Translations under genes and position numbers: made by a program
Assembly (NCBI GenBank): GCA_014239155.1
Contig: JAAZZQ010000029.1
Span: 1-51,907 of the forward strand
Length of the DNA: 51,907 nucleotides
Origin: Lachnospiraceae bacterium
GTDB taxonomy: Bacteria > Bacillota > Clostridia > Lachnospirales > Lachnospiraceae
Reading direction: 5' to 3'
Notes under the pieces: model-generated
What the model was told of the DNA's origin: nothing
Database searches by the model: none
What the model saw: only the letters and a program-made list of their open reading frames with translations
Shown: in pieces, positions 1 to 51,907 of the stretch
How positions within the stretch are numbered: the first letter of the stretch is position 1
How the letters are laid out: each line of letters begins with the position of its first letter

Positions 1-153
1 CGTTAGTCGGGAATTTAAGCCTTTGGAGTGTCATACCAAACGTGAGTAGATTATGTCTTGTCATTTCAAAAACGGACACGTTGAACAAGGAATGAAACAT
101 AAAAGTTTTATTTATAACTTTTTATAAGTTTTCAGTAACGGTGTAAACAGATT

Positions 154-4551: not shown

Positions 4552-4665
4552 TTACTATAAACGCTATCACAAGTGTGCATAATTGTCAAATAATACTCAC
4601 GGTAAATCAAGTTTTCCGGTCTTTATACAAAGCAGTCAAAAAGACAACTACTCCATATAATACAA

Positions 4666-5850
4666 TTAATTATTTACAGTTCCTTGTATTACAGTATCCA
4701 CAGCTCCCGCATTATTCTTTGCTGTATTGCCAGTGCTGCCCTCCACACTACTGTTCTCTATATTTCCATTTTCCATTGTACCGTTTTCTGTAGAGTTACC
4801 TTCTGTAGTATTATTAATTCCACCATTTACAGTTCCAGTATTCCCAGAATTTGTATTGTTTCCAATATTTCCTGACTGTCCACTATTCCCAGCATTTGTG
4901 CCGTTTCCAGTAGTCCCTGTTTGCCCAGCATTTGTGTCGTTTCCAGTAGTCCCTGATTGCCCAGCATTTGTGTTGTTATTGTTTGTCAAATTCCGCACAT
5001 CAAACCGTCCATGAAGGCCACGGTAAAACTCTTCTACACTGTCATTGATTTTAAAATCATTTGTCTGCAAAACATTGATATATTCCTTCACAATTCTTGC
5101 CAAATTACTGTCTGGGTTTGCATCCACAAACTGCTGATAATATTCCAATGCCTTGCGTTCAATAGAGTCGTTAGTGTCTCCTTTATAATAGTGTTCTATA
5201 CCCTCTGCCTTATTGTATCCACCGCTGATAGCGTTTGTTGCAATCTCTTCATACATTTTGGCAGCAGCCTCTGATGACACTTCATTTGGAAACTTTTCCA
5301 AATGCTGCTCGAACAGGCGAGCCCGCTCCAACATTTCAGACAATGTCATATTGATTGTTTTCCTGTTCTCCTTGTCTGACATTATCATAGAAGGTGTATC
5401 GCCCTCAAGACGCATCAAGTCCATAAAAGCAATCATATCTTCTGGCATATACTGTCTGCTATCCTCAAGTCTGGTAAAATCAATATTTCTAATATCGTCT
5501 CCAAAACTTAAAAGACCTGAGAAAAAATTTTTAACATCTGTTACTGCCGCCCCTGCAATATTGGTATTAATATAATCCATAATACTATTAGGATCTGTAT
5601 TTTTGTCCCCTATCATTGTATCAAACTCACTGTAGTCGCCATTTGCCACACCAGAACCAGCCTCACTGCCTCCTTCATTGCTGTTGCTCTCATTTGTCTG
5701 AGATTGGTCTGCACCTGTAATTGGGTCTTTATTTTCATTTCTGTTATCCCTTTTGCCACAGGCTGATACAGACAGTGCACAGGCAAAACATACCGCTGCA
5801 AGCATTGCTTTCTGTATTGTTACACTCTTTTTAACTATAACCTTTTTCAT
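4666..5850 (-). CDS. Putative lipoprotein with Asn/Thr/Gly-rich repeat tail
   Basis: A 394-residue exported protein of unknown function. Residues 1-30 are a lysine-rich signal peptide ending in the lipobox LSVSAC, with Cys31 as the predicted lipid anchor. An acidic Ser/Asn/Glu-rich linker follows, then a mostly helical domain (about 75-290) with no recognised catalytic motif. From about 295 the protein becomes an Asn-Gly-Thr-rich low-complexity tail containing 12-residue repeats of the form NAGQTGTTGNGT. Start: ATG after GGAGGAAAATTT; an upstream in-frame ATG at 5874 lacks a ribosome site. The tail probably spans or rests in the cell wall. Confidence 0.8.
   Translation of the reverse strand: MKKVIVKKSVTIQKAMLAAVCFACALSVSACGKRDNRNENKDPITGADQSQTNESNSNEGGSEAGSGVANGDYSEFDTMIGDKNTDPNSIMDYINTNIAGAAVTDVKNFFSGLLSFGDDIRNIDFTRLEDSRQYMPEDMIAFMDLMRLEGDTPSMIMSDKENRKTINMTLSEMLERARLFEQHLEKFPNEVSSEAAAKMYEEIATNAISGGYNKAEGIEHYYKGDTNDSIERKALEYYQQFVDANPDSNLARIVKEYINVLQTNDFKINDSVEEFYRGLHGRFDVRNLTNNNNTNAGQSGTTGNDTNAGQTGTTGNGTNAGNSGQSGNIGNNTNSGNTGTVNGGINNTTEGNSTENGTMENGNIENSSVEGSTGNTAKNNAGAVDTVIQGTVNN
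4888..4977. repeat. 36-bp tandem repeat inside the lipoprotein gene
   Basis: Two nearly identical 36-bp units (4888-4923 and 4924-4959) plus a half unit (4960-4977), beginning CCCAGCATTTGTG on the plus strand. The length keeps the reading frame and encodes the 12-residue Asn/Thr/Gly repeat of the lipoprotein tail. Copy number could vary between strains by slippage. Confidence 0.85.
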
Positions 5851-6127
5851 AAATTTTCCTCCATAAGATTCCATAGTTATTACTGCTTTTCCTATTGTTT
5901 CTCATTTTCGGAAAAATATTCAAAGTCGCAGATTGATTACATTGAACACGATTTATTTCTTTTAGCAATCTATACAACTTTATAGGTTGATAATATTAGC
6001 CATGAAAATTAAAATTTTGTGGAAATCTCAAAAAGCAATATGAAAAATACATAAAACAATAGTTTTTGATGTTTGTCTTGTGGTCTTAACCCACTATCTA
6101 AAGCGAATGAATAGAATTGCAGCCACA

Positions 6128-7072
6128 TTATTTCAAATGATACCTTCCAAAACCAAAACTTGTATTCTTCCCTATATGTATCAATTCCCCAATCAACAGC
6201 AACACCCACATCTCCTCTGTCATCCCTTCCAATGCCAGATAACCTTTTATTCCTCTCAAAAAAATTTTTTTCTCTTTTCGTGTAGAATATCTAGCTACAC
6301 TCATGATATGACACTCCTGTCTGCAAATCTTTAATTTGCCGTCATCCTCACCAAATTTCAAGATACCACTTTCTATTCCTTCAAAACAATCCAACATATA
6401 AATTCTACGTCTGATAGCACTTATAATAGCATCGACTTCAAACTTCATTAAAAAATCATTTTGATATTTTAACGTGGTGGGTGTATCAAATATCATAACT
6501 GCTTCTTTCTTATTGAGAATATTGTCAGTCTTGACCATTCGGAAAACAAGATAGTCATAAAGCATATGTACAACATAATTGTTCATATTTATCAATTTTC
6601 CATCTAAAATTGACATTCCCTCTATATTCCTAATATCAACAATTTTGTATTTGGCGTGATTTTTTCCTATACCTTCCTCTGCCAATATGGATAAAGCTTG
6701 ATAAATCTGATTGAAATAAATAATTGTATTTCCAAATAAGATTATGTAAAATCTAAGTTTATCCCCCTCTTTAAAAATCTCCTGAGAATTCTCACATTCC
6801 ATAACATATCCAATACTCCCACCTGTTGTCACAAACTCTGGCTTTTTTACAAATTTTGAATACATAATTTTTTGTACAATGCATTCTGATTCAAAATCAC
6901 ATTTCTCGCATTGACGATCACGCACACAATTCATGCGCAGAAGCATCTCACCCATGCCCCCTCTAATTGCTGATACCTTATCTTTAGGCAAAACAGAGTC
7001 TTGCGGAAATTCAACTGTAAACTGCAGTTTGACAAAACGCACCTGCAGCGCCTTAAAAATATTATTATCCAT
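6128..7072 (-). CDS. cas6: CRISPR pre-crRNA endoribonuclease Cas6
   Basis: A 314-residue RAMP protein of the Cas6 type found with type III systems (PF10040-like). Signs are the N-terminal RGGMGEMLLRMNC segment followed by a four-cysteine cluster (Cys49, 55, 58, 64), the central FYIILFG strand, the EEGIGKNHAKYKI segment, and a C-terminal glycine-rich loop GKNTSFGFGRY (301-311). Cas6 cuts the repeat RNA to release crRNAs. It is the last gene of the operon, 19 bases after the csm4 stop. Start: ATG with a weak GAAGA site. It sits where csm5 is usually found, but it lacks the Csm5 pattern. No further cas gene follows. Confidence 0.87.
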   Translation of the reverse strand: MDNNIFKALQVRFVKLQFTVEFPQDSVLPKDKVSAIRGGMGEMLLRMNCVRDRQCEKCDFESECIVQKIMYSKFVKKPEFVTTGGSIGYVMECENSQEIFKEGDKLRFYIILFGNTIIYFNQIYQALSILAEEGIGKNHAKYKIVDIRNIEGMSILDGKLINMNNYVVHMLYDYLVFRMVKTDNILNKKEAVMIFDTPTTLKYQNDFLMKFEVDAIISAIRRRIYMLDCFEGIESGILKFGEDDGKLKICRQECHIMSVARYSTRKEKKIFLRGIKGYLALEGMTEEMWVLLLIGELIHIGKNTSFGFGRYHLK

Positions 7073-7091
7073 ATCTATTTATATCTTCTTT

Positions 7092-8039
7092 TCAAATTTT
7101 TATAAAACAAGGAACAGCGATTGTATAAGCACCTATCACAATCCTGTCAGATACCCGCCCTGCTTTTAATGTCACTTTTTCCACACAGGAGCCATAAAAA
7201 TCTTTTGCAAAATGCGTGTAAAATGTACTTCCAGCTAATAAGAATATTAATGGTTTTTTAAAGGGGGAATCTTCCTCCGATGAAATATAACTGACCTTCG
7301 GATACTTCACAAATGTTTTATAAAACCCTTCTGTCGGATCATCCTTTCGAGGTACAAAATTTGAAAGCGCTACAAACGCATTAGCCTGTTCAGGTATTGC
7401 AAATTCTTCAAATTTCGCCATCTTCTCCACAATCTCAAAAGCTCCTTTTCCTACTGAACGCTGTGCTCCAATTCCTGTCCGAAACATTTCTCTCAAAGTA
7501 CTGTCCAATACATCTACAGTAAATTTGGAGTAAATATAAATGTCATAATTTTCACTCGAGTATGTTTCCTCTACTTCAAAAAGGCTCCCCTGTCCCTCCG
7601 CACTTTCGACCATATTAGAATCACGCCCCACCATATTTCGCCATGACTCTACTGTTGATTCATGTGTGTTATAGTCATCGGAAAAAACAGCTTTTCCACC
7701 ATTAATAATCATGTTAAATTCATTTAAAGTAATCGTTGAAAGACAGCTTTTTTTCTTATTATAAATATAAGAAGCATACCTTTCATGCTTTGTCAGCAAT
7801 GTATTCTGATTCTCGTCAGTTTCATCTGTTCCAAAAGGCATTGGAAGCCTGCCACTTGGAAACGCATTGGAAAATATGATATCGGGTTCCCCATTCTTAT
7901 AATGATCAATAAGTTCTTGTAATGCCCGCTCTCCATATTGATATAAATAACTCCAACAAAATGCCCCAAAAAAGGTATCGCTTTGAAGCGGTGAACAGAA
8001 TGAATTTACAGGTTTTATAACAATTTTATATAAGTTCAT
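7092..8039 (-). CDS. csm4: Type III-A effector subunit Csm4 (Cas5 group)
   Basis: A 315-residue RAMP protein. The N-terminus MNLYKIVIKPVNSF, then LQSDTFFGAFCWSY (about 18-31) and FPSGRLPMP (about 61-69), is typical of Csm4. The C-terminus ends in a glycine-containing strand with VIGAYTIAVP. Csm4 caps the crRNA 5' handle and contacts Cas10. The ATG at 8039 is chosen because AAGGGAGG lies immediately upstream; a longer in-frame ATG would run back into csm3. It starts 10 bases after the csm3 stop, so translation is probably coupled. Confidence 0.85.
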   Translation of the reverse strand: MNLYKIVIKPVNSFCSPLQSDTFFGAFCWSYLYQYGERALQELIDHYKNGEPDIIFSNAFPSGRLPMPFGTDETDENQNTLLTKHERYASYIYNKKKSCLSTITLNEFNMIINGGKAVFSDDYNTHESTVESWRNMVGRDSNMVESAEGQGSLFEVEETYSSENYDIYIYSKFTVDVLDSTLREMFRTGIGAQRSVGKGAFEIVEKMAKFEEFAIPEQANAFVALSNFVPRKDDPTEGFYKTFVKYPKVSYISSEEDSPFKKPLIFLLAGSTFYTHFAKDFYGSCVEKVTLKAGRVSDRIVIGAYTIAVPCFIKI

Positions 8040-8049
8040 TGTGCCTCCC

Positions 8050-8763
8050 TTAAACGGACATCTGTACTGTTGGCTTTTTCTCGTCTTGAATCTCATACTC
8101 AAAAGTCACACTTCCCGAACCTCTAGAGCCACATCCGCCCAGATACGACTCCTGCACCAACTTCAGGCTTTCAACCACTTTATCAATTAAATGTTGTTTA
8201 TTATCTCCCTCAAAAATCCTAAGAACAATCTCAAAATCAAAATACGTTCCTGCTGGAACCCGCTCTATTATTCTTGGTGAATCTGCTGTATCGGAAGTTC
8301 TTGATACAATATTTTCAGTCTTTCGTTCCAAAATAACAGAATTCTTCTCCATTTTTTCTTTGGACAAAACAGCATCCCGAACAATAATCCTAGTCGGTGC
8401 AGAATCTGCTCCCGGATTTTTATGTGAGCCAAAAATCATGCAAATTAGACAGGACTTTTCTCCACATCCACAGGGTTCCTTGTCCCCTACAACAAGAATT
8501 TTATCTTTTTTCCTTTTCAGCACTTCTTTATTTGATTTTTGAGACTCTTTAATCCAACACTTTGTCCCATATTTCTTTTCCAACTCAGAACGCATTTTTC
8601 CTTTCAAACTAGATCCAGGTATATAGGGTTCCTTAGTGATTGGATTTTTGATTACTTCCCTGTCTATCCCTCCAATATCTAATGTGATAGAAGAGCCTCC
8701 TATGCTCAATCCTGAAACACAATATATTTTTCCCGAAAATATCACAGCTTGCTCTAACTTCAT
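8050..8763 (-). CDS. csm3: Type III-A backbone and RNase subunit Csm3 (Cas7 group)
   Basis: A 237-residue Cas7-family protein that coats the crRNA and cuts target RNA at 6-nt steps. The family block GLSIGGSS (18-25), IGGIDREVIKNP and YIPGSSLKGKMRSE is clear. Asp34 in IGGID aligns with the catalytic Asp33 of streptococcal Csm3, so RNA cleavage should be intact. A Cys cluster CGCGEKSCLICMIFG lies in the middle. The C-terminal YLGGCGSRGSGSV loop is typical. It lies 12 bases downstream of csm2 in the same operon. It is the only Csm3-like subunit in the operon. Confidence 0.92.
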   Translation of the reverse strand: MKLEQAVIFSGKIYCVSGLSIGGSSITLDIGGIDREVIKNPITKEPYIPGSSLKGKMRSELEKKYGTKCWIKESQKSNKEVLKRKKDKILVVGDKEPCGCGEKSCLICMIFGSHKNPGADSAPTRIIVRDAVLSKEKMEKNSVILERKTENIVSRTSDTADSPRIIERVPAGTYFDFEIVLRIFEGDNKQHLIDKVVESLKLVQESYLGGCGSRGSGSVTFEYEIQDEKKPTVQMSV

Positions 8764-8775
8764 CTTCCAATCCCC

Positions 8776-9189
8776 CTATTTCTGGTTTTGTCTAGGCAAA
8801 TATGCAATTAATGACTGAAAATGTTTCATAAATGCTTTCAAATCCTCCTCGTCATAAATGCACTGGACATTAGATTTTATAAACCTCTCAAACTCCCAAG
8901 TGACAGTTTTCCTTTGCTTCGCATAATTGACAGCTGGTAACAATTCACACAGTTCTGACTTATGAAATTCTAAGGAATCTCCTTTTTTTATATTATCCTG
9001 AATTCGCAAAACGTGGTCATAAAACTTCCATATCTGTGACAACTTATTGCTTGATCCACTAGCCAATTTTCTTGCAAGCTCTTCAGGATATTCAACTATA
9101 TACTTCGATTTAAGCGATTTCTTATTATCAACCAGCCTAAAATAACCGTCCATCAAGTCCTCACTATATTCCTCCCAAAACTTATCCAT
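8776..9189 (-). CDS. csm2: Type III-A small subunit Csm2 (Cas11 group)
   Basis: A 137-residue, mainly helical protein. The segment SSNKLSQIWKFYDHVLRIQD (about 46-65) matches the Csm2 signature T-x-S-Q-L-R-K-F-Y-D, and LLPAVNYAKQRK (about 83-94) matches its L-x-P-x-x-x-Y-x-x-x-R segment. Csm2 lines the inner face of the Csm complex and contacts the target RNA. Its start codon overlaps the 3' end of cas10 by 8 bases, which indicates coupled translation. Somewhat longer at the N-terminus than many Csm2 proteins. Confidence 0.85.
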   Translation of the reverse strand: MDKFWEEYSEDLMDGYFRLVDNKKSLKSKYIVEYPEELARKLASGSSNKLSQIWKFYDHVLRIQDNIKKGDSLEFHKSELCELLPAVNYAKQRKTVTWEFERFIKSNVQCIYDEEDLKAFMKHFQSLIAYLPRQNQK

Positions 9190-11410
9190 TTTGCCTTTCC
9201 TCCTTTGTCAACCAAAATGCATATCTCACACAAAATTCGACATAATAAAATTGTTTATCAATCTTATTATAATCAGAAGCATTTTTATATAACTCGGCAC
9301 AATGATTCTGAAAATCTGGCAACCTCTTTAATATATTATTGTTGCGCATCCTATCATTCGCAAACAGAGGTAGAAATACCAATTTGCCCACATCCTTGTC
9401 TCTGTGATAATCCTGGTACATACTACTGTACGATGCCAACCGTCTAAAAAATCCAACTCCTATTGCAGCTGCTGCCTGAGCATACTCTGTCCCTCTTGAA
9501 ACCTGCTCTTCAAAGTCTTCCCATGACATTGTTTTTCCCAAAAAATAAATTCCGTTTCTTCCTTCTTTGTCAGGAGATACCAAACGATCTGATTCTTGCT
9601 TTACCTGGCTCAGTTTTTGTTCACAACGCTCTGCAAAAATTGAAATGTGTCCTCCACTCTCCGCCATACAGATTGCAGCTGACAAAGTAACACACGGATT
9701 ATCGCCAGTGTACTCATGAAACATTTTATTCATATCAATCGCCAATACGGGCATATCACTCCACGGTCCAATCAAAAACAAGTCATCTCCGCCTGAAAAA
9801 ACGCAATATACATTCTGATACTTATTTTGAATTAAATGACTAAGACATTTGCCAAAAAACAAATCTAACATAAAGGATAATGTATTTACTCTTGAAATTG
9901 ATACTTTTTCGTCTTCATTGTTTCTTAGTCCCTGGGAGAATAAAAACCCCAATGTATCCACATCCGCTTTCAATATACCAAGTTTTTTACCACCCTTAGC
10001 TTCCTCCGCGATTTCGCTGAAAGTTTTTATTTCCCCCGAAGTTTGTTGTAATGGAACATGATTGACTGCATAACAAATTCTAACTGGCTTATTATACATT
10101 TCAATCATATTAGAATCATTTAATAACATAATCAGATAAGATTCTTCTGTTTCTGGTATCTCATTTAAATTTAAAAAATAATCATCCAGTAACTGATATT
10201 GCCCTTTCTTCCGACTAAAAGAATACGATTTTATTTTAGGGAGTATTCCACCAATCTCTGTATCTATTTCACAGTTACAACACATCTCCTTTCCCTCATC
10301 CACAAGTGCACTTCTACACGCCTTACACATAGACTTATGAGCCAAATCCTGATAGACAACAAACTGTTCTGTATTCCATTCCTTTCCGTCAATCAGCACA
10401 CTCTCCAGCAATCGGCACTTTTTCTTTTCGATCTTTTGGGAAAGAATACTAACTATATCGCTATAATTGCAAAGCCCCTCGTCCGCAACTTTTTCCCATA
10501 CAAGCTCTAGGGATAAATTCCCCTTAAATTTTTCATATAAAAATCTCGTAACCTGCCGTTCAATTTTTTGCAGCTCACTTATTGTCTCCTCCGTATTGGG
10601 TAACAAAATATAAAATTTTCCACCTGTGAGCATTACAATATTCATCATAGGCAATCCAAACTTATGTATAATACAATGTGCAAGTGCACTTACCATCGCA
10701 TTTACGTAAAAAGAACGAGCGCGTAGCCTTTTTGTTACACCACTGGTTCCTACCTTAGAAACTGAAAAAATATATTTTTGTATTCCAGAAAAATGCCCTG
10801 CTACAAATACATATGGGGCATCCTTTTCTCCCTCCTGCATTAACACAGCAACAATCGCCGTTGTTGTACAAATATACTCATAAAGCGAAACGTCCTCATT
10901 CTTTTTATCACTTGCTGGAATACTCCAAAAATATTTCTTTAACAGCGTATCCATCACAATCAAAAATGAGTCTAACTCTTTCGGCGGGGTACGCATACAT
11001 AGTGTTAATTCATCACAAAAACTGTGTAGTATACAACCTGTTGCGAAACCTTTTGTTTGCTGCTTACATGGCTGGATATTTTCGTCGCTGAGTATCTTTG
11101 GTGCGTAATATCTTTTTTCAGGATAAGAACCATCCAGGCTTAAGTTTGAAAATACACTGCACAAAAAATGTGTTCTATCGTTTTGCTCTTCGTCAAATCT
11201 TCCCAACGCCAGTCTTTTTGCCCTTTGAATCACATCCCAATTTTCTGTGGGTTCCGAAGTTGTCACCAATGTGCTCAACACAGCGAAATCAACATATTTT
11301 GCAAAAAGACACTTATATTCCAAAAGAAACTCTGCCATTGAAATATCCAAAACTCTAACTAATTCTATTATTATTGAACCTAAAACTGTTTCTTTTATCC
11401 ATTTCATCAT
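9182..11410 (-). CDS. cas10: Cas10/Csm1, cyclase competent, HD nuclease motif absent
   Basis: A 742-residue large subunit. From about residue 200 it aligns well with Csm1: AGHFSGIQKYIFSVS (204-218), LRARSFYV (229-236), a zinc ribbon with Cys362, Cys365, Cys377/378 and Cys380, LKADVDTLGFLFSQGL (480-495), and the Palm GGDD at 540-543. GGDD marks synthesis of cyclic oligoadenylate from ATP. The first 190 residues are helical but contain no HD pair; the usual LLHDIGK segment is missing, so single-strand DNase activity is not expected. MMKW at the start offers two ATGs after AGGAGT; translation probably begins at one of them. The upstream gene ends 7 bases away, leaving no room for a lost HD segment. 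Confidence 0.92.
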   Translation of the reverse strand: MMKWIKETVLGSIIIELVRVLDISMAEFLLEYKCLFAKYVDFAVLSTLVTTSEPTENWDVIQRAKRLALGRFDEEQNDRTHFLCSVFSNLSLDGSYPEKRYYAPKILSDENIQPCKQQTKGFATGCILHSFCDELTLCMRTPPKELDSFLIVMDTLLKKYFWSIPASDKKNEDVSLYEYICTTTAIVAVLMQEGEKDAPYVFVAGHFSGIQKYIFSVSKVGTSGVTKRLRARSFYVNAMVSALAHCIIHKFGLPMMNIVMLTGGKFYILLPNTEETISELQKIERQVTRFLYEKFKGNLSLELVWEKVADEGLCNYSDIVSILSQKIEKKKCRLLESVLIDGKEWNTEQFVVYQDLAHKSMCKACRSALVDEGKEMCCNCEIDTEIGGILPKIKSYSFSRKKGQYQLLDDYFLNLNEIPETEESYLIMLLNDSNMIEMYNKPVRICYAVNHVPLQQTSGEIKTFSEIAEEAKGGKKLGILKADVDTLGFLFSQGLRNNEDEKVSISRVNTLSFMLDLFFGKCLSHLIQNKYQNVYCVFSGGDDLFLIGPWSDMPVLAIDMNKMFHEYTGDNPCVTLSAAICMAESGGHISIFAERCEQKLSQVKQESDRLVSPDKEGRNGIYFLGKTMSWEDFEEQVSRGTEYAQAAAAIGVGFFRRLASYSSMYQDYHRDKDVGKLVFLPLFANDRMRNNNILKRLPDFQNHCAELYKNASDYNKIDKQFYYVEFCVRYAFWLTKEERQNG

Positions 11411-11417
11411 TCGACTC

Positions 11418-12242
11418 CTATATTGAATACAAAAGATTAGAGATGCGTTCTATAACTGTTAAACCATAATTCGCATTACTTACATAAAAACACGAGGCAT
11501 ACAATGATCTGTCTATATTCTTTTCACTATATAAAATACAATATACTTCTTTATCATTACATTCCCTAGAAATTCTTGCATATGTAATATTTTCATCCGC
11601 ATTTGTAAACTCATTATCTCCTACCTGGTAAACAATAATATCATACTTTTTTGTCCAATGACGTATTTTTCTATTCTGAATAGGAATATTCTGTGTAAAT
11701 TTTTTCATTTGAACAGAATATTTCTGCTGTTCCAAAATTCCATATACCTTCTTTAGATTTAGATTTTCATTATCATAAAACACAAAAAGTATCTTTTTAT
11801 TTCTCGCCGCTTCTTCTTTTTTAACACAATCCATAAGATATTCAATTTTATCCTGTCCGCCAATAAGCCCCCCCATCTCCTCTTGTATCTGATTTGCATA
11901 CTGCTCTCGTATAATATTAGAAATATCTTCTCTCCCTTTTATTTCAAAAAATGCAAATATCCCTGTAAGAGCTACACCCACAGCACCAATCAACCAAATC
12001 AAAAATTCTTGTTGTTTTTCCATAAACTCCCTATACTTGGCAATTTCATTTTCCAGAAAATCTATTGTCTGTATGTACTCTGTCTGCGTCGTCGAATCGC
12101 TGTGTATATTCATTGTATTAACATCCCGCTGCAATTCACTTAGCACTCTACCGATATGATAAAATTCACAACTTCCAAAAATGAATATAGCGCAAATAAT
12201 GATTGTCATAACAACAGAAAAACCATGTTTTTTCAACTTCAT
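11418..12242 (-). CDS. Two-TM protein with cytosolic Rossmann-like domain; candidate CRISPR effector
   Basis: A 274-residue protein that I do not recognise as a named family. Visible parts: TM1 about 9-29; a polar, probably coiled-coil extracytoplasmic loop 31-78; TM2 about 80-99; a charged linker 100-148; and a C-terminal alternating strand-helix domain 149-274. The domain's strands are KKILFVFY (149-156), DIIVYQVG (201-208) and EVYCILYS (232-239). By charge, both ends face the cytosol. It is the first gene of the type III operon and ends 7 bases before cas10. There is no csm6, so it may be the cyclic-oligoadenylate effector, as with the membrane effectors Cam1 and Csx23. The C-terminal fold could instead be TIR-like or receiver-like. 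Start: ATG after AGGA. Confidence 0.8.
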   Translation of the reverse strand: MKLKKHGFSVVMTIIICAIFIFGSCEFYHIGRVLSELQRDVNTMNIHSDSTTQTEYIQTIDFLENEIAKYREFMEKQQEFLIWLIGAVGVALTGIFAFFEIKGREDISNIIREQYANQIQEEMGGLIGGQDKIEYLMDCVKKEEAARNKKILFVFYDNENLNLKKVYGILEQQKYSVQMKKFTQNIPIQNRKIRHWTKKYDIIVYQVGDNEFTNADENITYARISRECNDKEVYCILYSEKNIDRSLYASCFYVSNANYGLTVIERISNLLYSI

Positions 12243-12397
12243 CTAATCCTGCCCCCTATGTAAATAATCTTGTGGTGGTAAAATCATCTATTTCGCATAA
12301 AACTTCTGCAAAATTTTTCTCATAATTGTAAGTATTTTATATATTTTTATTGTTGTTCCAAATTATGCTATTTATTTACTTTATATTTTTTTGCATA

Positions 12398-12426
12398 ATT
12401 ATATCATTATTGTTATATTGTAACAA
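12398..12426 (-). promoter_or_regulatory. Promoter of the type III CRISPR operon
   Basis: On the minus strand TTGTTA and a perfect TATAAT are separated by 17 bases. The predicted start near 12390 leaves a leader of about 150 bases before the membrane-protein gene. No other promoter-like sequence lies between the six genes, whose gaps are 7 to 19 bases or overlaps. Confidence 0.6.
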
Positions 12427-12669
12427 GGGACAGAATTGACCATTTTTGTAGAAAACTTTCTCTTTATCGACACATTTCTTATGTTGCGCTTCAATTTACT
12501 ATACATTCTTAATTATCTATTATCGTTTCTACTAATGCATTTATTCTATACTGTATACTATACAGATATAACAAATCATTCATTAACCCACCATATGATT
12601 TTCGCAAGTACATCTATAAAAATCAAAAACTTTTTTATTAGAATGTGCCAGTTAGATAACGTCATAAAA
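12427..12669. other. AT-rich intergenic stretch, no gene seen
   Basis: About 240 AT-rich bases lie between the CRISPR operon promoter and the S8 protease terminator. Open frames here have no ribosome site and no protein-like composition. I see no repeats resembling a CRISPR array next to the cas genes. Confidence 0.6.
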
Positions 12670-12707
12670 CACCCATTATTCAACCATCGTGTGATAAATA
12701 ATGAGTG
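12670..12707 (-). terminator. S8 protease gene terminator
   Basis: On the minus strand an 11-bp stem (CACTCATTATT with AATAATGGGTG, one G-T pair) and a 16-nt loop are followed by TTTTATG, 11 bases after the protease stop codon. Confidence 0.65.
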
Positions 12708-12717
12708 CTTTCCATTT

Positions 12718-48890: not shown

Positions 48891-49340
48891 CTATTTTGTA
48901 TCTTTCGGTATCACAGGGTCTTTCATAGCATACTTTCTGTCCCATTCCTTCGTGGTATCATTTCGCTCCACATCACATCTGTTAGCACTTAAAAATCCTG
49001 CCAATTGGTAAAAATCTACCCAAATTTCATTATTTCCATCTTTTTGAGACTCGTCAAAAATTAACTGCAAGCCGACATGTAAATGCACAGACTTGATATT
49101 GTTCACATTTTCCTTGTCACTGTATCCAGTATGCCCCATGTAACCAATCACATCACCCGCGGTAACATAATCACCTTCCTTTAACCCCTCCGCATAAGGC
49201 CTGTTCTGGCGCAAATGCGCATAGTAATAGTATCGTTTCTTATCAAAACTGCGAATGCCAATGCGCCAACCACCATATCGATTCCAACCAAGCGCCTCCA
49301 CATACCCCGACTCAACCGCGATAATGGGCGTGCCAATCAA
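48891..49340 (-). pseudogene. 5'-truncated M23 metallopeptidase
   Basis: About 149 codons match the second half of a LytM/M23 endopeptidase: GGWRIGIRS, YYYAHLRQN, GDVIGYMGHTG and the metal and catalytic motif HLHVGL. The first metal-binding H-x(3)-D segment, any signal peptide and the natural start codon are missing. The frame opens only at a TTG and closes at a stop a few codons upstream. The break falls about 60 bases before the terminator and CRISPR array. It is therefore a remnant, probably non-functional, left by a rearrangement at the array side. Confidence 0.75.
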
Positions 49341-49398
49341 AATGTTAAGTAGAATATATTTCCTTTACTATATGACTTTTATCAAACAGAATAGCCCA

Positions 49399-49448
49399 AA
49401 AATAACGCAAAGCTAATTCATTTAAAATGATTCGTTTTGCGTTATTTT
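49399..49448. terminator. Terminator at the distal end of the CRISPR array
   Basis: AAAATAACGCAAA and TTTGCGTTATTTT form a perfect 13-bp inverted repeat with a 24-nt loop, seven bases beyond the last repeat. A and T ends allow action on either strand. In the minus orientation it would end the array transcript. Confidence 0.65.
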
Positions 49449-49454
49449 AGTGTG

Positions 49455-49930
49455 GCAATTCCCTTTAGCGGGTATTTTTCTTTTCTACAACAATGGGAAA
49501 ACGACAGCTGGAGAGCACAAAATGTAACAATTCCCTTTAGCGGGCTTCTTTCTTCTTTATGGTATCAATCGTCATGAGAGTCGAAAAATTGTAAATAAGC
49601 GGCAATTCCCTTTAGCGGGTAGACTTCGTTTCTATCCAGAAGAAATTGAGACGCTTTCAATCATTATCAACATATAGTAATTCCCTTTAGCGGGTAGACG
49701 TCATTTCTACATTTATGGCAACGACGAGTTCAGAAGTAACTGGTTGCAGCAATTCCCTTTAACGGGTATAAGGCATTTCTACACGCTTCATTCCGTCAAA
49801 AAAACCATTAACTGTTGAGTAGCAATTCCCTTTAGCGGGTAGACTTCGTTTCTACCAGTAAACCACCAATCATGATCGAACCGGATTTTTCTTTTAGCAA
49901 TTCTCTTTAGCGGATAGACGTCATTTCTAT
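49455..49930 (-). CRISPR. Degenerate seven-repeat CRISPR array, no adjacent cas genes
   Basis: Seven repeats of about 34 bp start at 49455, 49527, 49602, 49677, 49749, 49822 and 49897. They are separated by six unique spacers of 38-41 bp. The plus-strand core GCAATTCCCTTTAGCGGGTA is well kept; the other half, GACTTCGTTTCTAC, varies, most in the two repeats at 49455 and 49527. On the minus strand most repeats can fold GTAGA with TCTAC, and the repeat at 49897 keeps this stem by paired changes to ATAGA/TCTAT. An AT-rich leader and promoter to the right indicate minus-strand transcription. Spacing suits type III. The only cas6 in view is 37 kb away. Confidence 0.88.
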
Positions 49931-50078
49931 AGTATCCCCTCACAATCCTCTAAAATCAAGGTTTTCAAGACTCATTTTCGCAGGCAATTATCTGACTATT
50001 CTAAAAACAGTCTTTTTCAGGCTTCCTTTTTGATTTCTCAAAAATTATAATATATTAATACAATTTTTTATGTAATTT
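49931..50078 (-). promoter_or_regulatory. CRISPR leader
   Basis: About 150 AT-rich bases between the array promoter and its first transcribed repeat, with no open frame. This is where a leader is expected if new spacers enter at the 49897 repeat. Confidence 0.5.
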
Positions 50079-50107
50079 ATTTTATCATACATTCCATTCT
50101 CTATCAA
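50079..50107 (-). promoter_or_regulatory. Promoter of the CRISPR array
   Basis: On the minus strand TTGATA and TAAAAT are exactly 17 bases apart, reading into the leader and array. Confidence 0.6.
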
Positions 50108-50148
50108 TAGCCATTTTCTTTTTTAAGCAATTACCATATTATAATAAT

Positions 50149-50185
50149 AAAAGACCCACTTTAAAAAACTTAAAACAGATCTTTT
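50149..50185 (-). terminator. Terminator of the lysis cassette
   Basis: On the minus strand AAAAGATCTGT can pair with GTGGGTCTTTT through 11 pairs, several of them G-U, followed by ATTATTAT. It lies just after the amidase stop codon and isolates the CRISPR promoter from phage-type transcription. Confidence 0.5.
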
Positions 50186-50198
50186 ATTCTAAAAAATA

Positions 50199-51008
50199 TT
50201 ATCTAACACAAACACTTATAAATGTCTTTCTTGTAATTTCTCCCACAATTCCATCTTTTTTTAATCCCAATCTCTCTTGTGCTGTTTTTATTGCAGCTTC
50301 TGATTTGGAACCAATTACACCATCAATCTCGGATTTTCGCAACAAGCCAAAACGCCATAAGTACCATTGTACCCATTTTGCACTTTCTCCTTTTGTTCCT
50401 CTCCTTATATTAGTTATTGGTTCTTTATATGGATTAATTTCTGATGTTATCGTTACATTTGTTGGAACCATTTTAACACCAAGCCTTTCATTTACTTGTT
50501 CTGCAATATAACTATGCAGATTATATAAGTAATTTCCCGGACAAGCTTTCGCTGCAAAATCCCTATGTACAGTCATATTGCAGCCATTCTTATGATTTAT
50601 GCGGTCTAACTTGTTTTCAGACCACACCAACTTTTTAATTCCGTTTCGTTTACAAATATCTGTTACAAGTTCAATCAAACTTGATATCGCCTTATCAGAT
50701 ACATGCCAATCGGGTGCTCCACCATCATTTGCGACTTCAATTGTAACTGCTCTGTGATCGTTTTTGGCATTAGATGATGCCCATGACCTGTCTTTTTCCT
50801 CAACATACAACGCAATCCTTCCATCTGTTCCTATACCATAATTAGAAGATGCTTTTCTGGAAGACAAAGCAAATACATTTCCACAAGTTTCAATGGATAG
50901 ATTACCTGCCATACAGTGAATTGTAATAGTATCAATTTTATGATTTCTTGGAGTCTTATTTGGACTTAGTTTTCTGAAAAGCGCCAATAAACTATTTGTA
51001 AATTTCAT
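50199..51008 (-). CDS. Phage-type N-acetylmuramoyl-L-alanine amidase (endolysin)
   Basis: A 269-residue endolysin-like protein without a signal peptide. The Amidase_2 domain (about 20-175) has zinc ligands His31 (TITIHCMAG), His148 (MTVHRDF) and Cys156 (KACPG), with Glu91 as a likely catalytic residue in VTIEVAN. Residues about 205-269 form a peptidoglycan-binding domain (RRGTKGESAKWVQWYLWRFG, DGIVGEITRKTF). It cleaves the bond between muramic acid and the stem peptide. Start: ATG at 51008 after AAAGGTGG; the longer frame adds unrelated residues. It is the last gene of a three-gene lysis cassette. Confidence 0.92.
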   Translation of the reverse strand: MKFTNSLLALFRKLSPNKTPRNHKIDTITIHCMAGNLSIETCGNVFALSSRKASSNYGIGTDGRIALYVEEKDRSWASSNAKNDHRAVTIEVANDGGAPDWHVSDKAISSLIELVTDICKRNGIKKLVWSENKLDRINHKNGCNMTVHRDFAAKACPGNYLYNLHSYIAEQVNERLGVKMVPTNVTITSEINPYKEPITNIRRGTKGESAKWVQWYLWRFGLLRKSEIDGVIGSKSEAAIKTAQERLGLKKDGIVGEITRKTFISVCVR

Positions 51009-51089
51009 TTCATTTTCCACCTTTCTTACTGTTTTGTTCAAAGAAATAGGGTGGCAATTTGCCACCCTAAACTATGTTTTATATTTCTT

Positions 51090-51326
51090 CTACTCCTCAA
51101 ACTTATCCACCTCTATGTCAGTCTGTGTTGTAATATTTGCTGCATCAGTTAAGCCTTCACCTACAACATAAGCTACTATTGATGCACCAGCCATAATAAG
51201 CGCTGTTACTTGTGTAGCAGTATTCTCGGTTCCGCCTGTGGCTACAATCATCATAGACACAAAAGATGCGACTGAAGCCCATAATTTACGGCTTGTAAGT
51301 TTTCTTATCCAATTAATCTGTTTCAT
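51090..51326 (-). CDS. Phage holin-like small membrane protein
   Basis: A 78-residue protein with a basic N-terminus (MKQINWIRKLTSRKLWAS), two short hydrophobic segments (about 16-33 and 43-60) and an acidic tail. Size, topology and position directly upstream of an amidase indicate a holin that releases the endolysin. Start: ATG at 51326 after GTAGGAGG. I cannot place it in a specific holin family. Confidence 0.75.
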   Translation of the reverse strand: MKQINWIRKLTSRKLWASVASFVSMMIVATGGTENTATQVTALIMAGASIVAYVVGEGLTDAANITTQTDIEVDKFEE

Positions 51327-51366
51327 AGTATGTCCTCCTACCAAAAATTAAAATTCTGTTTGCAAC

Positions 51367-51675
51367 TTATATCCCAAGCTGTGTCATAAGGTAGCAAACA
51401 ACAGCACCTACAACCGCTGTAACAACATGGGAAGCAACCCTGCGCCATTTCTCACCATCTCTAGCTTCCAGTATTTCCAAACGTGTCCCCTGTTTTTCCT
51501 GCTCCTTTACCATACTCTCCATACTAGACGCAAGCTTTTCTACTGAAGTAGTAAGTGCTCCTATCTGCCTAACACTTTCTTCCAATTCTGCGATCCTGCG
51601 ATTTTGGCGGTGGTTTTCATCATCCTGTCGTCTTGCAAACTCCTCATGCTCCTTTCTGGATATCCCTTCATCCAT
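51367..51675 (-). CDS. XhlA-like coiled-coil membrane protein of lysis cassette
   Basis: A 102-residue protein: a charged N-terminus (MDEGISRKEHEEFARRQD), a coiled-coil heptad region (about 25-72) and a single C-terminal membrane helix (about 80-98). This is the layout of hemolysin XhlA proteins found with holins and amidases in defective prophages such as PBSX. Start: ATG at 51675 after AAAGGAGGAAG. A longer frame to 51759 would overlap the next gene's end and has no ribosome site. Confidence 0.75.
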   Translation of the reverse strand: MDEGISRKEHEEFARRQDDENHRQNRRIAELEESVRQIGALTTSVEKLASSMESMVKEQEKQGTRLEILEARDGEKWRRVASHVVTAVVGAVVCYLMTQLGI

Positions 51676-51745
51676 GTGACTTCCTCCTTTCTTCCTTTTT
51701 GCGCATAAATAAACGCATATCAACGCCAAATTTCTTTTTTGGTGC

Positions 51746-51907
51746 TCATATGCGGTCATTTAGGGAAATAAATAGTAATTTAGTAAAAATCAAAACTGGA
51801 ACATATATAACAAGTAAAATACCAGTATGTATAAATTTAGAATTTAAAGCAAAATATTTCTGTGCAATTGGAACAATAAATGGCAAAAAGATTATTCGAC
51901 TATACAA
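51746..51907 (-). CDS. C-terminal fragment of a multi-pass membrane protein, cut by window edge
   Basis: The minus strand is open from the right edge to a TGA at 51746-51748, giving about 53 residues. They include two hydrophobic stretches (IIFLPFIVPIAQKYF and HTGILLVIYVPVLIFTKLLF) and end in SLNDRI. This looks like the last helices of an integral membrane protein, perhaps an acyltransferase-3 type enzyme, but there is too little to name it. The start lies outside the window. Confidence 0.4.
   Translation of the reverse strand: MYSRIIFLPFIVPIAQKYFALNSKFIHTGILLVIYVPVLIFTKLLFISLNDRI

What the first reader, a model, noticed from the sequence alone, without database searches (positions are those of the whole stretch)
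6128..12242. Type III CRISPR variant built for signalling: HD-less Cas10, no Csm5 or Csm6, membrane protein first
Seen: six tightly packed minus-strand genes under one promoter. They encode a two-TM protein, Cas10 with GGDD but no HD motif, Csm2, one Csm3, Csm4 and Cas6. No csm5, csm6, cas1 or cas2 lies in the window. Known: type III-A normally has HD plus GGDD in Cas10, a Csm5 head subunit, and a Csm6-type nuclease activated by cyclic oligoadenylate. Inference: target recognition here would cut RNA through Csm3 and make cyclic oligoadenylate, with no DNase step, and the output would pass to the membrane protein. The whole set, rather than any one gene, is the candidate new system.
Basis: partly seen in the sequence, partly recalled or inferred. 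Interest (0 to 1): 0.85.

Follow-up and report, generated by a model that had tools for sequence, protein, structure and literature searches.

The report
Trimmed CRISPR operon with membrane partner
A gut bacterium carries a slimmed-down CRISPR system that lacks one standard subunit and the DNA-cutting part, and its operon begins with a small membrane protein that may be the weapon fired when phage RNA is seen.

Summary
Window 6128-12242 (minus) encodes a two-TM protein, Cas10/Csm1 with GGDD but no HD motif, Csm2, one Csm3, Csm4 and Cas6. No csm5 was found in the 4.57 Mb draft genome; the only cas1 found is on another contig.

Five Cas10s (window plus four relatives) form one supported group. 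All five loci lack csm5, whereas 28 of 34 comparable loci have it. HD loss is nested inside the group (window plus two). The membrane gene is not part of the conserved set: 0 of 4 relatives have it, and both HD-less relatives carry Csm6 right after csm4. So the conserved novelty is a Csm5-less III-A lineage; the membrane gene is a local addition in a genome where no Csm6 was found. HD-less III-A as such is common in print.

The membrane protein matches no known family. Its layout recalls Cam2 and Cap1, so I favour a messenger-gated membrane effector (untested).

Verdict: new variant of a known kind.

The parts
11418..12242 (-). 274-aa protein: two N-terminal TM segments (beginning near residues 7 and 80) and a C-terminal domain, about residues 145-274; candidate membrane effector
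   Evidence: ORF; hydrophobicity; no known family; one clear distant homologue, L105
9182..11410 (-). Cas10/Csm1, 742 aa, FSGGDD cyclase motif, no HD motif
   Evidence: TIGR02578 472 bits; alignment; motif table
8776..9189 (-). Csm2 (Cas11)
   Evidence: PF03750 50 bits, TIGR01870 34 bits
8050..8763 (-). Csm3 (Cas7) with the IGGxD aspartate and a CxCGxxxCxxC motif present in the five Csm5-less loci and absent from the two ordinary III-A Csm3s aligned
   Evidence: TIGR02582 185 bits; alignment
7092..8039 (-). Csm4 (Cas5); start taken at an internal ATG (the longest ORF reaches 8102)
   Evidence: TIGR01903 101 bits; best PADLOC Csm4 match begins at residue 22 of the long ORF
6128..7072 (-). Cas6 crRNA endonuclease
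   Evidence: PF10040 47 bits; PADLOC Cas6 213 bits
12398..12426 (-). promoter-like site upstream of the operon (TTGTTA, 17, TATAAT); weak evidence
   Evidence: the number of such sites in the region is at the chance level
49451..49931 (-). CRISPR array, 7 degenerate repeats of about 37 nt, 6 spacers of 35-38 nt, in the end of a prophage; possible but unproven crRNA source for this operon
   Evidence: the same array in an IMG/VR contig, L165

Best explanation
This is a Csm5-less and HD-less variant of a type III-A (Csm) CRISPR effector operon, from a small Clostridia lineage that lost csm5. A Cas6-processed crRNA is loaded on Cas10-Csm2-Csm3-Csm4; on binding phage RNA, Csm3 cuts the RNA and the Cas10 palm makes a nucleotide messenger; with the HD residues gone Cas10 cannot cut DNA by that site (gene content and motifs shown, activities inferred). 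In the two closest relatives the messenger would go to the RNase Csm6 (gene presence shown, function inferred). In this genome no Csm6 was found, and the operon starts with a two-TM protein with a C-terminal cytosolic domain; I think it is the messenger-gated effector and that it damages or depolarises the membrane as Cam1, Cap1, Csx23 or the proposed Cam2 do (inferred).
For: Gene identities. HD loss and intact GGDD. No csm5 in the draft genome. Of 46 type III loci put in (L033 and L034 are near-copies), 34 hold cas10 and csm3 with 3 kb or more after csm3: 28 have a Csm5-like RAMP ORF there and 6 do not, namely window, L029, L030, L031, L053 and L037. L037 lies elsewhere in the tree and has an odd 562-aa Csm3-like ORF. 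Cas10 tree of 60 rows (quick search): the five are one group (SH-aLRT 100), the three HD-less ones a subgroup (98). Csm6 directly after csm4 in L029 and L053. No Csm6 CARF over the cut-off in this genome, with a positive control. The membrane gene ends 7 bases before cas10, same strand. Membrane effectors in type III loci are in print: PMC11229360, PMC12642688.
Against: The membrane gene was seen in one type III locus only; absent from 4 of 4 relatives. Its only clear homologue (L105/L124, 195 aa, one TM) is not beside a cas10; by eye it stands between an HNH-like gene (17 bits, under the Pfam cut-off of 21) and a YhcG/DUF1016-like gene, some 4.4 kb from a cas3-like gene, and its genome (G547) is not among the 28 with a Cas10 match. 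No sensor domain could be recognised; both structure models are poor (mean pLDDT 48.7 and 50.1) and the fold search of the second gave nothing at E 0.001 or better. No array was found beside the operon. The genome is a draft in 89 contigs, so csm5 or csm6 could be in a gap.
Confidence: 0.6

Rival explanations
1. The membrane gene is a chance passenger or a general defence-island protein that happens to stand in front of cas10; the Csm complex acts by RNA cutting alone or through an effector elsewhere in the genome that was not searched for.
For: 0 of 4 relatives have the gene; the one clear homologue is not beside a cas10; the gene has the lowest G+C of the operon, 31% against 33-38% for the other five. 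Csm6 was searched for, but other effector families (CARF, SAVED, NucC, CorA) were not searched for in the whole genome.
Against: It lies 7 bases before cas10 on the same strand, as first gene of a tightly packed operon, in a genome where the Csm6 of both HD-less relatives was not found; N-terminal TM segments followed by a C-terminal cytosolic domain is a layout known from type III effectors.
Confidence: 0.3
2. The operon is decaying: csm5, the HD domain, the adaptation genes and a well-kept array are lost, and it no longer gives immunity.
For: No csm5 or csm6 found, no cas1 beside it, and the only array on the contig is degenerate and sits in a prophage.
Against: All six ORFs are intact; GGDD and the Csm3 aspartate are kept at only 38-40% Cas10 identity to the nearest relative; csm5 loss is shared by five diverged loci, one of which (L031) has cas1- and cas2-like genes (by eye) and a 14-repeat array, so Csm5-less systems persist.
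Confidence: 0.15
3. The operon uses the phage-borne array at 49451-49931: the prophage supplies guides that the host's Cas6 and Csm complex process, so the prophage arms the host against rival phages, or instead floods Cas6 with decoy repeats.
For: The array's hairpin-bearing core is better kept than its flanks, 3 of 112 against 30 of 147 mismatches, Fisher p 8.5e-6, the core being chosen after seeing the data. The crRNA-strand repeat ends GGGAATTGCTAC, similar by eye to GGGATTGCGAC of the array beside the Cas6 of L032, which is the only one of the 20 loci with a hit to this Cas6 (5e-24). The type I locus on C25 has a different repeat.
Against: The array is 37 kb away and in a mobile element; five of six spacers, searched as exact 21-mers, match nothing in the viral collection but the same array, and a search of phage and plasmid records gave only weak matches (E about 6 for those listed) and none.
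Confidence: 0.25

Closest known systems
Subtype III-A (Csm) CRISPR-Cas
   Same: Cas10/Csm1, Csm2, Csm3, Csm4 and Cas6 all match III-A models; gene order cas10-csm2-csm3-csm4
   Different: No csm5, no HD motif in Cas10, no csm6 found, a membrane gene first
Csm5-less Clostridia loci L029 (CANQHX010000038.1), L053 (CASDVE010000040.1), L030 (CALWDX010000026.1), L031 (CALWSK010000002.1)
   Same: Same cas10-csm2-csm3-csm4 block without csm5; one Cas10 group; L029 and L053 are also HD-less
   Different: L029 and L053 have Csm6 after csm4; L030 and L031 keep HDIGK, and L031 has GGNE in place of GGDD; none has the membrane gene
Cam2, proposed type III membrane effector (PMC11229360)
   Same: N-terminal TM helices and a C-terminal domain; here the strand/helix alternation of the C-terminal domain, judged by eye and from poor models, would fit a REC-like fold
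   Different: No Cam2 sequence was at hand to compare; fold not established
Cap1, cA4-gated pore of a III-A locus (PMC12642688)
   Same: Two TM helices, then a cytosolic sensor-type domain, in a III-A locus
   Different: Cap1 has in addition DUF4579, which Pfam did not find here; here some 50-60 residues lie between the two TM segments, in Cap1 a sharp turn
Csm6 (CARF-HEPN RNase)
   Same: Would fill the same functional place as in L029 and L053
   Different: Not homologous; no CARF or HEPN in the membrane protein

Membership tests
Subtype III-A | Cas10/Csm1 of the Csm1 family | tested here: met
   TIGR02578 472 bits, cut-off 170
Subtype III-A | Csm2 (Cas11) small subunit | tested here: met
   PF03750 50 bits; TIGR01870 34.1 bits, cut-off 30.6
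Subtype III-A | Csm3 and Csm4 | tested here: met
   TIGR02582 185 bits, TIGR01903 101 bits
Subtype III-A | Csm5 as second Cas7-like subunit | tested here: not met
   draft genome; RAMP motif only in Csm3; hence filed as a variant, not as an ordinary member
Subtype III-A | HD nuclease motif in Cas10 (common, not obligatory: 65% in PMC11229360) | tested here: not met
Messenger-signalling type III system | Intact GGDD cyclase motif | tested here: met
   FSGGDD
Messenger-signalling type III system | Target-RNA-dependent synthesis of cyclic oligoadenylate or SAM-AMP | not testable with these tools
   Biochemistry needed
Messenger-signalling type III system | Effector with a recognised sensor domain (CARF, SAVED or other) | tested here: not met
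   No Pfam family in the C-terminal domain at E up to 10; no Csm6 in the genome over the cut-off
Cam2 membrane effector | N-terminal TM plus C-terminal REC-like domain | tested here: inconclusive
   TM met; fold not resolved; no Cam2 sequence compared
Cap1 | Two TM helices, CARF-like domain, DUF4579 | tested here: not met
   Two TM segments met; DUF4579 not found by Pfam; CARF-like fold not resolvable
Cam1 / Csx23 | Homology to the known membrane effectors | not tested
   No model or sequence of these was compared by name

The most novel reading that the evidence does not exclude
A separate Csm5-less branch of type III-A in Clostridia that has given up the Cas10 DNase and works by signalling, and in this genome has swapped its Csm6 RNase for a new family of membrane effector whose cytosolic domain senses the Cas10 messenger through a fold outside the known CARF and SAVED sensors.
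Probability: 0.35. Interest if true: 0.72.

Novelty: new variant of a known kind. Interest (0 to 1): 0.5.

Why it matters
If five diverged loci run a Csm complex without Csm5, the accepted role of Csm5 as the cap at the crRNA 3' end (recalled, not from a call) is dispensable in nature, and these are small natural complexes for structural work and RNA tools. Within the same lineage one locus has lost GGDD (L031), three have lost HD, and the effector differs (Csm6 or a membrane protein), which makes the division of labour in type III immunity directly testable. If the membrane protein is a messenger-gated effector, it adds a sensor domain that current family libraries do not know.

Tried and rejected
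Rejected: that HD loss plus lack of csm5 plus the membrane gene form one inherited package; the membrane gene is in none of the 4 relatives, and the other loci marked as HD-degenerate in the tree (L041, which keeps an altered HDTCK; L047; L059; L060) have csm5. Rejected: that a Csm6 model hit exists elsewhere in this genome; protein query at E up to 10 (without a positive control), then PF22208 with a positive control. Rejected: that the array is an ordinary host array; it lies within the prophage end.

Led nowhere: relatives of the membrane protein in viral contigs, plasmids and phages, PDB sequences, PHROGs. Whole-genome searches for it: 1 of 60 relatives, itself. 397 family genomes at E up to 1: 68 with a match, of which three at 0.001 or better: itself, G547, and G556 (7.3e-4, inside a 1211-aa frame, not inspected). 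341 class genomes at E up to 0.05: 25 with a match, best after itself 0.00235; of the hits I looked at 12, three and one, and found no other clear relative. 358 family genomes at E up to 0.01: 8 with a match; after itself and G547 the best is G289, 2.5e-4, a partial match inside a 600-aa frame that begins with a hydrophobic stretch. Two structure predictions were poor; the fold search of the second gave 0 matches at E 0.001 or better. Only one REC domain was found among the held loci, so no REC profile was built.

Literature on csm5 loss: searches, listings only, gave no title or abstract reporting a natural Csm5-less III-A; 'csm5' occurs 0 times in the main text of PMC12669027 and of PMC11229360. 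This does not show that it is unpublished. In PMC12669027 I also read section 8: its III-A2 variant lacks Cas11, which is present here.

Full report
What was claimed and what is there. The window is the whole of contig C7 (51,907 bases) of a 4.57 Mb draft genome in 89 contigs, 98.4% complete, 4.0% contaminated. Six minus-strand genes at 6128-12242 encode a two-TM protein, Cas10/Csm1, Csm2, Csm3, Csm4 and Cas6; the five cas genes match curated or PADLOC models. They overlap by 8 bases or are 7-19 bases apart (coordinates, csm4 begun at 8039). The intergenic stretch upstream of the operon (12243-12717) holds a promoter-like site, but the region has no more such sites than shuffles (29 against 29.4), so 'one promoter' is plausible and not shown. 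The operon has 35.4% G+C, its neighbours 39-41%, the membrane gene 31%, which fits horizontal arrival.

Cas10. FSGGDD is present and the HD motif is not: HDIGK in L030 and L031 aligns to IELVR here. HDxGK is missing in 13 of 64 Cas10 rows, some of them truncated or off by one residue, one a duplicate, so HD loss is not rare. A published survey gives a recognisable HD in 65% of III-A Cas10s (PMC11229360, part of the text).

Csm5. TIGR01899 finds nothing in the draft genome but a weak overlap on csm3, and the RAMP motif search finds only Csm3 in the window. Of 46 loci put into the count, 5 lack a csm3 or cas10 hit and 7 have under 3 kb after csm3; of the remaining 34, 28 have a Csm5-like ORF and 6 do not: the window, L029, L030, L031, L053, and L037, a locus elsewhere in the tree with a 562-aa Csm3-like ORF. 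Two of the 28 (L033, L034) are near-copies. In a 60-row Cas10 tree (quick search, midpoint root) the five are one group (SH-aLRT 100), with the three HD-less ones inside it (98). The five Csm3s share a CxCGxxxCxxC motif that two ordinary III-A Csm3s lack, and all seven keep the IGGxD aspartate. Same-genus genomes: 5 of 38, this one included, have a Cas10 match, the other four much weaker (best 4.6e-63); three of those four loci (L166-L168) have csm5 and the fourth (L169) gave no csm3.

Effectors. L029 and L053, the two HD-less relatives, have Csm6 directly after csm4 (PF09659 and PF22208 over their cut-offs). In the window genome PF22208 gives nothing over the cut-off, while the control genome in the same search does. 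Other effector families were not searched for in the whole genome. The window's extra gene stands first, 7 bases before cas10. No relative has it: a profile of its C-terminal domain against all ORFs of the loci held then finds only its own copies and L105/L124 clearly.

The membrane protein. Residues near 7-25 and 80-98 are hydrophobic; the lysines at the N-terminus and after the second segment suggest that both ends are in the cytosol (inference). One homologue is clear: L105, 195 aa, 35% identity over 68 residues, blastp E 4e-9 for the pair, 3.0e-5 in the genome search. It is not beside a cas10; its neighbours are HNH-like and, by eye, YhcG-like and cas3-like genes. No Pfam family matches either C-terminal domain at E up to 10. 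Structure models are poor and a fold search with one gave no significant match. By eye the domain alternates strands and helices, which would fit a REC-, TIR- or flavodoxin-like fold; this is a guess. Published analogues by layout: Cam2, TM plus REC-like domain, proposed to bind a messenger (PMC11229360, sections and passages read); Cap1, two TM helices plus CARF-like domain, forming a cA4-opened pore (PMC12642688, abstract and two sections read).

The overlooked array. Seven degenerate repeats lie at 49451-49931. Exact 21-base patterns from five of the six spacers each found one viral contig, L165, and it is the same array. L165:543-3004 equals window 51788-49327 at 99.96%; beyond that point L165 goes on with a serine recombinase (PF00239) and the window with an M23 peptidase gene whose domain match begins at profile position 13. 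So window 49327-51907 is the end of a prophage, probably inserted into that gene, and the array is about 120 bases from the junction. The repeat core is better kept than its flanks (3 of 112 against 30 of 147 mismatches; core chosen after the fact). Whether this operon uses the array is open. Virus-borne mini-arrays are in print (PMC6858448, title and start of abstract seen in the listing).

Verdict. The gene calls are right. The system is a new variant of III-A: a Csm5-less lineage, HD-less in three of five loci, in which this genome has a membrane gene and no Csm6 that I could find. The signal-to-membrane step is a good hypothesis, not a result.

Noticed in passing
window 49327-51907 and L165: Prophage end with amidase and holin-like genes, junction in an M23 peptidase gene, and a degenerate 7-repeat CRISPR array about 120 bases from the junction; in L165 a serine recombinase lies on the other side.
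   Followed up: partly
L031 (G139:C2 / CALWSK010000002.1) 8457-10814: A Csm5-less Cas10 with intact HDIGK and GGNE in place of GGDD, with cas1- and cas2-like genes and a 14-repeat array: the mirror image of the HD-less loci.
   Followed up: no
G000:C25 (L051): The same genome has a second CRISPR locus, type I-B-like by eye, with Cas1 and a 7-repeat array of a different repeat at the contig end.
   Followed up: no
L124 5165-9315 (G547): Homologue of the membrane protein's C-terminal domain in a cluster of HNH-like, YhcG-like and unknown genes near a cas3-like locus; possibly an undescribed defence cluster.
   Followed up: no
window 20-92: RAGATH-18 RNA at the contig start, 76.5 bits.
   Followed up: no
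L037 (G236:C51) 4654-6342: Csm3-like ORF of 562 aa with no separate Csm5-like ORF, and a Cas10 ORF without the usual N-terminus; a possibly degraded or fused III-A locus.
   Followed up: no
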